Positions 45,050 through 46,577 of a stretch of 59,364 bases of DNA are shown here, piece after piece (the first letter of the stretch is position 1; each line of letters opens with the position of its first letter). Under the pieces are notes generated by a model. It was given only the letters and a program-made list of their open reading frames with translations, was not told the origin of the DNA and searched no databases. Position numbers and translations under genes: made by a program. This DNA is from Dehalococcoidia bacterium (lineage in GTDB: Bacteria; Chloroflexota; Dehalococcoidia; Lucifugimonadales; Lucifugimonadaceae): the NCBI GenBank assembly GCA_009693115.1, contig SHXW01000015.1:1-59364 (forward strand), given 5' to 3'.

Positions 45050-45697
45050 TCAGGATGACATGCCGAAGCCCTTCGACCGCAGGTCCGTCGACGAAATGTC
45101 CGCTCTGAAATCGGCCTCCGGAATCTGGACGAGCAGATCGCGGTAGTGGGACGGGACTTCGATATCTGCGATCGTGCGGAACCGTCCGTCTGCGTCAACA
45201 CGCCCCGCGACGATGAAACTGCACCTGTTACGGCGCAATGTGTTCATCGCGAGAGCCACAGCGGAGCCAGCGTGCGTGGGATCCTTCGCTGGATCATAGG
45301 GCGGGTAGTAGCGTTCAGGAAAAAGTCTGATTGCGGTGTCGTAGCCGATGGCGAATCCGGAGCCGGGCAGAAGCTCGGACTTCTGCACGAATGTGGGAGC
45401 GCGGGTTAACACCAGGGTGGCCCTACCCTTGAACTGGGCGAGGCGGTTTACGATCACTTCTTTGGGTATGGGGGGTTTGTCAACGTTGGTGATGGAGAGT
45501 TCATAGACCGGCTCGCGGCCTGTGATCCGGTAGGCAGCGGCGAGCAGGCGTTCATGGCCGACATGGAGGGGGTTGAAGGATCCCGAGAGGATGACCGCGT
45601 TTTTCGGCGGGTGGGTGTGGATTTCTCCATCGGCCTCGACGACAATGATGGGGATTTCACCCGCGGACAAACGGTCAAAGGGGTCGCTTGCGCTCAC
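45050..45697 (-). CDS. NMNAT-like nucleotidylyltransferase
   Basis: This 215-residue protein has the nucleotidylyltransferase head VILSGSFNPLHVGHERLL with HVGH at 45-48 and, near the end, ISSTDLR (201-207), the counterpart of the ISST-x-R motif that binds the triphosphate. It resembles nicotinate/nicotinamide mononucleotide adenylyltransferases but has its own middle region (RYYPPYDPAKDPTHAG). Its GTG start overlaps the stop of the CinA-like gene by 4 bp (GTGA). The substrate is likely a pyridine or similar nucleotide; this is inferred from motif and neighbour. Confidence 0.82.
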   Translation of the reverse strand: MSASDPFDRLSAGEIPIIVVEADGEIHTHPPKNAVILSGSFNPLHVGHERLLAAAYRITGREPVYELSITNVDKPPIPKEVIVNRLAQFKGRATLVLTRAPTFVQKSELLPGSGFAIGYDTAIRLFPERYYPPYDPAKDPTHAGSAVALAMNTLRRNRCSFIVAGRVDADGRFRTIADIEVPSHYRDLLVQIPEADFRADISSTDLRSKGFGMSS

Positions 45698-46260
45698 AGT
45701 GATTCGATGACGGTTTCGCCATGGATGAGATCGAGGGCGAGCCTGCTGGGAAGCCCTGATGCTTCAGCGATAGCGTTGAGGATAATCAGGCTCCCCAGTC
45801 GTTCTTCGCCTACTCTGTCACGCGCTCCCTTAATGAACGTAAGGGAGTAAGCCTTCTGCCTACCCCCGCTCAGCCATGCGACGTGGACGCGGTTGTCGCC
45901 CCTTCTGGCGCGATCGGTGGCAATGGCCGCGGTACAGCCAATGCCTATCAGCGGCGAGGCAGGATCCAGGCCGGTCAGCGATGCGAGTTTTTGCGCCCGC
46001 CTGAGCGCGGCGCCGCCGATCTTAAGGGCCTCTTCGGCCGAAACGTGCTGGTCTGCCTGCGCGCCGACGTACTCATCGAGCGCGGCCCGAGAATAAGGGA
46101 TCTGTGCGTCAAGCACGGTGCGGGATGTTCCGGGTTCGGCGAAGAGCCATGCAATGGCCTGCGCACCAACGCCGCTGACCGCCAGACAACACTTGTGGCT
46201 GGTGCCGTGTATGGCGCGAACCAGAACGCAAATTTCCTCATTTGTGGCGCCGATTATCAC
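45694..46260 (-). CDS. CinA C-terminal-like (nicotinamide-nucleotide amidohydrolase) protein
   Basis: This 188-residue protein has the CinA/PncC fold: CLAVSGVGAQAIAWLFAEPGTSRTVLDAQIPYSRAALDEYVG, then LIGIGCTAAIATDRARRGDNRVHVAW. PncC enzymes deamidate nicotinamide mononucleotide. Here the first motif is AVSGVGAQ rather than the usual AESCTGG, so the activity may differ. As I recall, plant proteins exist that carry a similar CinA-like region and a nucleotidylyltransferase region in one chain, which supports a joint function with the overlapping downstream gene. The start is GTG 46260. Confidence 0.78.
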   Translation of the reverse strand: MIIGATNEEICVLVRAIHGTSHKCCLAVSGVGAQAIAWLFAEPGTSRTVLDAQIPYSRAALDEYVGAQADQHVSAEEALKIGGAALRRAQKLASLTGLDPASPLIGIGCTAAIATDRARRGDNRVHVAWLSGGRQKAYSLTFIKGARDRVGEERLGSLIILNAIAEASGLPSRLALDLIHGETVIESL

Positions 46261-46577
46261 GTTGCCCCTATCTGTCTCAGAAGTGGCGTATTTTGCCCGC
46301 CCATGTCAGGCCAAGTGCGCGCGCTGCGAGTATATGTCCGCCACTGATGTACGCGCTCGCTGGTGTGGACTCACTGTGTTCAAGGAAGCGACGGGCACCC
46401 TTCGGCCGGACCACAGACCGTGTTAGTTTGCAACTGCCTAAGAACAGGCCAACGGCACAACGGCTGTTAGCGGGCGAATCAAATCGAGGCCAGCGAATTT
46501 GATAGTCTGGAACGGATTGTGAAAAAGATCACATATGTCTGGGCTGTGTGCATCACAGTGCCGAAGGGAAGAGTCTG
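46261..46577. other. Divergent intergenic region, CinA-like/MMPL
   Basis: This 317-bp spacer contains the perfect CRP-type palindrome at 46518-46533. No other clear promoter element was recognised. Confidence 0.4.
46518..46533. promoter_or_regulatory. CRP/FNR-family operator TGTGA-N6-TCACA
   Basis: A perfect TGTGA-AAAAGA-TCACA palindrome with AT-rich flanks matches the CRP consensus half sites exactly. It lies 44 bp before the MMPL start ATG and about 258 bp before the divergent CinA-like gene, so it most likely controls the exporter. The acting regulator is not in the window. Confidence 0.6.

What the first reader, a model, noticed from the sequence alone, without database searches (positions are those of the whole stretch)
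45050..46260. Coupled CinA-like and NMNAT-like genes: a possible nucleotide repair or salvage module
Seen in sequence: a CinA-C-like gene and an NMNAT-like gene overlap at GTGA. The CinA-like protein has AVSGVGAQ in place of the usual AESCTGG catalytic segment, and the transferase keeps HVGH and ISSTDLR. Established: PncC-type CinA domains deamidate NMN and NMNATs adenylylate NMN/NaMN. Inference: the pair acts in sequence on a pyridine or damaged nucleotide. From memory, similar regions occur fused in plant proteins, which would make this a widely conserved but undescribed pathway.
Basis: partly seen in the sequence, partly recalled or inferred. Interest (0 to 1): 0.7.

Follow-up and report, generated by a model that had tools for sequence, protein, structure and literature searches.

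The report
NMN-adenylating enzyme with deamidase-dead CinA partner
Two overlapping genes encode an enzyme of the type that makes NAD from NMN, plus a partner built like an NMN-cutting enzyme that lacks its cutting residues; the two halves are usually one fused protein in many bacteria, some archaea and very large phages, where the gene often sits beside the gene that makes NMN.

Summary
On the minus strand a CinA-like gene (45694-46260) overlaps an NMNAT-like gene (45050-45697) at GTGA. The pairing is not local. In most relatives the halves are one ~385-aa protein (Chloroflexota, Planctomycetota, Gammaproteobacteria, other bacteria, archaea); the window carries a split version. In one Chloroflexota family the halves are unlinked, yet 7 of 8 genomes keep both.

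The CinA half has the CinA fold (pLDDT 96, Z 16.7-18.5). Across 67 relatives it keeps the NMN-deamidase phosphate residues (G46 65, S48 67, Y58 65, R145 67) and never has catalytic Lys63. The transferase half folds like NaMN/NMN adenylyltransferases and resembles yeast Pof1 (NMN-specific) more than NadD, which all relatives also carry.

Of 35 records with a NAMPT/NAPRTase-family gene, 24 have it within 5 kb (3.4 expected).

Best reading: an NMN-to-NAD salvage enzyme whose CinA domain binds NMN without deamidating it; in phages, the second step of a NAMPT-NMNAT pathway. Not shown: any activity, or the CinA domain's role. New variant of a known kind.

The parts
45694..46260 (-). CinA-like (CinL) gene, 188 aa, GTG start, TGA stop
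   Evidence: ORF; family in 23/31 relatives; CinA fold, pLDDT 96.3, Z 16.7-18.5
45050..45697 (-). NMNAT-like (Pof1-type) gene, 215 aa, GTG start
   Evidence: ORF; PF01467 25.6 bits vs cut-off 21; fused homologue L002 folds like NaMN/NMN adenylyltransferases
45694..45697 (-). GTGA stop/start overlap, probable translational coupling
   Evidence: sequence
46265..46269 (-). AGGGG, possible ribosome-binding site upstream of the CinL start
   Evidence: sequence; inference
46159..46182 (-). AVSGVGAQ, replaces AESCTGG; Ser29 aligns with catalytic Ser31 (S 7, T 35, A 25 of 67 relatives)
46123..46131 (-). G44-T45-S46, equivalent to phosphate-binding G46 and S48
   Evidence: 65/67 and 67/67 conserved
46093..46095 (-). 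Tyr56, equivalent to phosphate-binding Tyr58 (65/67)
46078..46080 (-). Leu61 at the position of catalytic Lys63 (Lys in 0/67)
45931..45933 (-). Thr110, equivalent to Thr105 (63/67)
45814..45816 (-). Arg149, aligned with the phosphate-binding Arg145 region (67/67)
45554..45565 (-). HVGH nucleotidyltransferase motif
   Evidence: sequence; H45 and H48 invariant in A5
45077..45097 (-). ISSTDLR nucleotidyltransferase motif
   Evidence: sequence; S202, S203 and R207 invariant in A5

Best explanation
A two-part NMN salvage enzyme. The transferase half adenylylates nicotinamide mononucleotide with ATP to give NAD and pyrophosphate. The other half is a CinA (NMN deamidase) fold that keeps the residues holding the nucleotide phosphate but has lost the Ser/Lys deamidation machinery, so it most likely binds NMN (capture, gating or sensing) without turning it into NaMN. 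In most organisms the halves are one polypeptide; in the window they are split into overlapping genes. In the host, NMN would come from NAD-dependent DNA ligase and NAD breakdown. In large phages a neighbouring NAMPT makes NMN from nicotinamide, so the pair would be the second step of a NAD-rebuilding pathway like the NadV-NatV and NARP2 types. Shown: predicted fold of both halves, conserved fusion and co-occurrence, residue pattern, NAMPT linkage in phages. Inferred: NMN as the substrate, loss of deamidation, NMN binding by the CinA half, any counter-defence role.
For: Fused in 56 bacterial or archaeal loci, and split or unlinked in a few lineages. In 151 Chloroflexota genomes strong hits give both halves in 23, the transferase alone in 1, CinL alone in 0, and 7 of the 23 keep the halves at distant loci. 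The CinL fold matches CinA structures at Z 16.7-18.5, and profile-profile comparison with canonical CinA gives probability 98%. The four NMN-phosphate contacts are kept in 65-67 of 67 relatives and Lys63 in none; the same holds in 55 phage CinL sequences. S31A and K63A abolish deamidase activity in A. tumefaciens CinA (PMC5384747). The transferase half matches NaMN/NMN adenylyltransferases at Z 9-12.5 versus 7.4-7.9 for PPAT and GCT. Its profile scores 38.9 bits on yeast Pof1 versus 12-19 on NadD (Pof1 sequence from memory, checked at H43 and R227); Pof1 is NMN-specific (PMC13191266). All 31 relatives also have a NadD match, so this is an additional enzyme. In phages 35 of 50 records carry a NAPRTase/NAMPT-family gene, 24 of 35 within 5 kb (3.4 expected), and most of those examined carry the NAMPT_N domain.
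Against: No activity or binding was measured. The Pof1 comparison uses a recalled sequence. Host Chloroflexota almost never have NAMPT (1 of 151), so the NMN source in the host is inferred. A few phage records have a Nudix protein that looks like NatV beside the pair (L161, L215), so the pair may not simply fill the NMNAT slot. One Planctomycetota fusion (L083) has an intact canonical CinA with Ser and Lys, which would be an active deamidase. In nine loci of the window's order the gene is followed by UbiD (with UbiA and UbiX where seen), which this model does not explain. Threonine at the Ser31 position in 35 of 67 could be a nucleophile for other chemistry.
Confidence: 0.55

Rival explanations
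1. Bifunctional sequential enzyme: the CinA half still catalyses a reaction on a pyridine or damaged mononucleotide by other chemistry, and the transferase then adenylylates the product.
For: Strong conservation of G106, T110, T115, R117, a basic residue at 119, R124 and R149 points to an intact ligand site; Thr replaces Ser31 in 35/67; one natural fusion carries a canonical CinA (L083).
Against: The general base Lys63 is absent in 67/67 and 55/55, and Ser31 is Ala in 25/67, so no common nucleophile is left; no other catalytic pair was identified.
Confidence: 0.22
2. The pair serves another mononucleotide pathway, for example flavin or prenylated FMN, suggested by the UbiD-UbiA-UbiX neighbours; the adenylyltransferase would act on that nucleotide.
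For: Nine loci of one Chloroflexota order have UbiD immediately or closely downstream, followed by UbiA and UbiX where the locus reaches that far.
Against: The arrangement is confined to one order and absent in the window and other phyla; the nearest folds of the transferase half are NaMN/NMN adenylyltransferases; phage copies are beside NAMPT instead.
Confidence: 0.1
3. The CinA half is only a structural or dimerisation domain with no ligand.
For: It is dispensable in some lineages: Planctomycetota and Oscillochloris genomes carry the transferase without it.
Against: The most conserved residues are the ligand-phosphate contacts of the parent enzyme, in bacteria, archaea and phages; in the 151-genome sample CinL never occurs without the transferase but is kept when unlinked.
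Confidence: 0.1

Closest known systems
PncC/CinA NMN deamidase (PF02464; 2a9s, 4ct8)
   Same: fold; G46, S48, Y58, T105 and R145 equivalents
   Different: no Lys63, variable Ser31, no YxNxxK, AGP replaced by a TDR-K/R-RG stretch; fused to an adenylyltransferase instead of COG1058
Yeast Pof1 (YCL047C), NMN-specific adenylyltransferase
   Same: closest characterised relative found for the transferase half: HxxH, DK, VGxDTxxR and SS(S/T)xxR motifs (recalled sequence)
   Different: Pof1 has no CinA domain; reported to have low activity and extra roles (PMC13191266)
NadD (TIGR00482) nicotinate-nucleotide adenylyltransferase
   Same: fold and motifs
   Different: window protein scores 20.8 bits versus cut-off 112; NadD is present separately in all relatives
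Phage NAD salvage: NadV-NatV of KVP40 (from memory) and NARP2
   Same: NAMPT gene beside an NMNAT-type gene in large phages
   Different: the NMNAT here is a Pof1-type domain fused to a CinA fold, not NadM-Nudix (NatV); counter-defence not tested
HcgF (3wva), FeGP cofactor biosynthesis
   Same: next-best fold match after CinA, Z 10.8; its reaction as I recall it also acts on a nucleotide-pyridine compound
   Different: no sequence match; not fused to an NMNAT

Membership tests
PncC / NMN deamidase (PF02464) | CinA fold | tested here: met
   Z 16.7-18.5, 150+ residues aligned, on a predicted model
PncC / NMN deamidase (PF02464) | profile score over the curated cut-off | tested here: inconclusive
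   window protein no hit; relatives L009 and L015 over the cut-off
PncC / NMN deamidase (PF02464) | catalytic Lys63 in YxNxxK | tested here: not met
   Leu61 in the window; Lys in 0/67 relatives
PncC / NMN deamidase (PF02464) | catalytic Ser31 in AESCTGG | tested here: inconclusive
   Ser29 in the window, but S in only 7/67 relatives; motif otherwise lost
PncC / NMN deamidase (PF02464) | NMN phosphate contacts G46, S48, Y58, R145 | tested here: met
   65/67, 67/67, 65/67, 67/67
PncC / NMN deamidase (PF02464) | deamidates NMN | not testable with these tools
   needs an assay
NMN/NaMN adenylyltransferase superfamily | PF01467 match with HxGH and SSTxxR motifs | tested here: met
   25.6 bits vs 21; invariant motif residues
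NMN/NaMN adenylyltransferase superfamily | nearest folds are NadD/NMNAT rather than PPAT or GCT | tested here: met
   Z 9-12.5 vs 7.4-7.9, on the fused homologue L002
NadD (TIGR00482) | equivalog score over 112 bits | tested here: not met
   20.8 bits
Pof1-type NMNAT | sequence relation to Pof1 | tested here: inconclusive
   38.9 bits over 200 residues, but the Pof1 sequence was recalled, checked only at H43 and R227
NAMPT-NMNAT salvage (NARP2-like) | NAMPT gene in the same phage genome, close by | tested here: met
   phage records only: 35/50 with a NAPRTase/NAMPT-family gene, 24/35 within 5 kb
NAMPT-NMNAT salvage (NARP2-like) | NAMPT in the window's own genome | tested here: not met
   no PF18127 match in G000
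NAMPT-NMNAT salvage (NARP2-like) | protects phage against NAD-depleting defence | not testable with these tools
   needs an infection assay

The most novel reading that the evidence does not exclude
A previously undescribed class of NMN adenylyltransferase in which a deamidase-dead CinA domain captures or gates NMN. It is spread over bacteria, archaea and very large phages, which pair it with NAMPT to rebuild NAD, possibly against NAD-depleting immunity.
Probability: 0.45. Interest if true: 0.75.

Novelty: new variant of a known kind. Interest (0 to 1): 0.6.

Why it matters
It links two known pyridine-nucleotide enzyme families in one widespread but apparently uncharacterised protein. It gives a concrete, testable role to a catalytically dead member of the CinA family: directing NMN to NAD instead of NaMN. 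The phage copies beside NAMPT suggest a further route by which phages rebuild NAD, with a distinct NMNAT to look for. I found no description of the fusion in the paper searches made here, and the PncC classification paper does not mention it in the passages read (PMC3855486).

Tried and rejected
Chance or artefact ORFs: rejected by conservation. Housekeeping NadD: rejected, since a separate NadD match is present in all 31 relatives. Canonical NMN deamidase: rejected on Lys63. Conserved host neighbourhood as a clue to function: only UbiD-UbiA-UbiX recurs, in one order, so it was left as an open lead. CinL hidden elsewhere in the transferase-only genomes: none found in 8 genomes (the same profile finds 23 strong hits). 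A canonical CinA-NMNAT fusion like L083 in more Planctomycetota: only that one among 199 genomes, judged from the 30 loci returned. PHROGs has no family for the proteins. The terminase check (PF03237) rang in only 16 of 50 viral records, so phage identity rests more on IMG/VR classing, the two INPHARED phage records, and the virion and thymidylate synthase genes in L241. Paper searches on plant fusions gave nothing usable.

Full report
Observation. The two ORFs are on the minus strand: CinA-like 45694-46260 (188 aa) and NMNAT-like 45050-45697 (215 aa), overlapping at GTGA. A possible AGGGG ribosome-binding site precedes the first start. Neighbours are a FIST-domain gene and an MMPL transporter gene on the other strand, with no evident link.

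What the halves are. The NMNAT-like protein passes PF01467 but scores only 20.8 bits against the NadD equivalog, whose cut-off is 112. The CinA-like protein alone has no family hit. Its relatives' profile finds CinA structures 2a9s and 4ct8 at E 0.002-0.003, PF02464 passes its cut-off in L009 and L015, and profile-profile comparison with canonical CinA domains gives probability 98%. AlphaFold2 on a 67-sequence alignment gave pLDDT 96.3; the best matches are all CinA proteins, Z 16.7-18.5, followed by HcgF at 10.8. A fused homologue (L002, pLDDT 92.5) matches CinA in its first half and NaMN/NMN adenylyltransferases in its second, with PPAT and GCT lower at 7.4-7.9.

Conserved pairing. Of 41 loci from two searches (the window included), 25 are single fused proteins; 9 of the other 16, the window among them, have an adjacent overlapping transferase gene and the remaining 7 belong to one family whose halves are unlinked. 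On a 57-row tree the fused, split and unlinked states need 5 changes, with split cases nested among fused ones, so the window pair is most simply read as a local split; the tree is unrooted and many forks are weak. In 151 Chloroflexota genomes, strong hits give both halves in 23, transferase alone in 1, CinL alone in 0, neither in 127 (Fisher p about 3e-26, not corrected for kinship). In 7 genomes of one family the two genes lie far apart. In this sample CinL appears only where the transferase is, while the transferase can occur alone (8 genomes searched whole).

Active site. In A. tumefaciens CinA, S31A and K63A abolish activity, and the NMN phosphate is held by G46, S48, Y58 and R145 (PMC5384747; also PMC4246079). 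The window equivalents are Ser29, Leu61, Gly44, Ser46, Tyr56 and Arg149. In 67 relatives the phosphate set is G 65, S 67, Y 65, R 67, and Thr105 is T 63; the Lys63 position is never Lys and the Ser31 position is T 35, A 25, S 7. The Arg149 assignment rests on alignment, not on coordinates. Fifty-five distinct phage CinL sequences show the same pattern: G 53, S 54, Y 54, R 47 (7 gapped), Lys63 none. The parent deamidase's phosphate site is kept and its catalytic dyad is lost.

The transferase as an extra enzyme. All 31 relatives carry a separate NadD match. A profile of the transferase half gives 38.9 bits to yeast Pof1 versus 12-19 for four NadD proteins and nothing for 200 shuffles. Pof1 is reported as NMN-specific (PMC13191266). 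This is a supporting lead rather than a database test.

Phages. A scan of IMG/VR with the fused alignment returned 80 loci, of which 50 carry one fused ORF and about 15 adjacent pairs. INPHARED has two uncultured huge-phage records: LR745208.1 (485 kb), with the fusion, and LR756511.1 (595 kb), with the transferase half. LR756511.1 has a virion structural gene and thymidylate synthase nearby. Within 2 kb of the pair, 24 loci have an NAMPT/NAPRTase-family gene and 21 a Nudix gene; NAMPT_N was confirmed in most of those scanned. Across 50 whole records, 35 have an NAPRTase/NAMPT-family gene and 24 of these are within 5 kb of the pair, 3.4 expected for random placement; for records of 100 kb or more, 16 of 26, 1.05 expected. 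NAMPT is found in many phages generally (1,907 of 50,697 phage records match), so presence alone is weak evidence, while adjacency is strong. NAMPT makes NMN, the substrate expected for the transferase half. Phage NARP pathways rebuild NAD against NAD-depleting defence (PMC12774641, PMC11984713, PMC12028318); whether these phages use the pair that way is untested.

Mechanism proposed. NMN binds in the CinA half, which cannot deamidate it, and NMN is adenylylated by the transferase half to NAD. This fits the residue pattern, the Pof1 resemblance, the one-way dependence of CinL on the transferase and the NAMPT linkage. Binding, specificity and transfer between sites are inferred. In the host the NMN source would be DNA ligase and NAD turnover, since NAMPT is nearly absent in Chloroflexota (1 of 151).

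Loose ends. L083 is a fusion with a canonical CinA (AESCTSG, YRNKSK; PF02464 E 8.9e-30) found in one genome only. UbiD, with UbiA and UbiX where seen, follows the fusion in one order. The plant fusion was not testable here.

Noticed in passing
L006, L012, L015, L019, L020, L042, L043, L044, L046, downstream of the fusion: UbiD downstream on the same strand, followed by UbiA and UbiX in the four loci long enough to show them; a conserved cluster in one Chloroflexota order, function of the link unknown.
   Followed up: partly
L083:5437-6558: Single Planctomycetaceae genome with a canonical PncC-type CinA (Ser and Lys intact) fused to the same transferase domain.
   Followed up: partly
L115-L119 (G170, G134, G175, G106, G146): A second, distant class of NMNAT-like proteins (about 240-325 aa, SFNPxTxAH, FDKIxQIFDPRYYxD) in other Chloroflexota, without a fused CinA domain.
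   Followed up: partly
L093-L096: Single-domain CinA proteins in the window's family with YTxxAR-type segments in place of YxNxxK, another possible deamidase-dead variant.
   Followed up: no
L161:439-1398, L215:3005-3889, L227:3259-3996: Phage Nudix proteins with an extra N-terminal region resembling NatV (NadM-Nudix) beside the CinL-NMNAT pair, so some phages may carry two NMNATs.
   Followed up: partly
L202:2573-3967 and L241:12963-14378: HldE-like heptose kinase/adenylyltransferase next to a phage transferase-only copy (family match for L202; by eye for L241).
   Followed up: no
G000:C27:71071-71367: Only other PF02464 match in the window's genome is weak (27.9 bits) inside a 413-aa frame, so the genome may lack a canonical NMN deamidase.
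   Followed up: no
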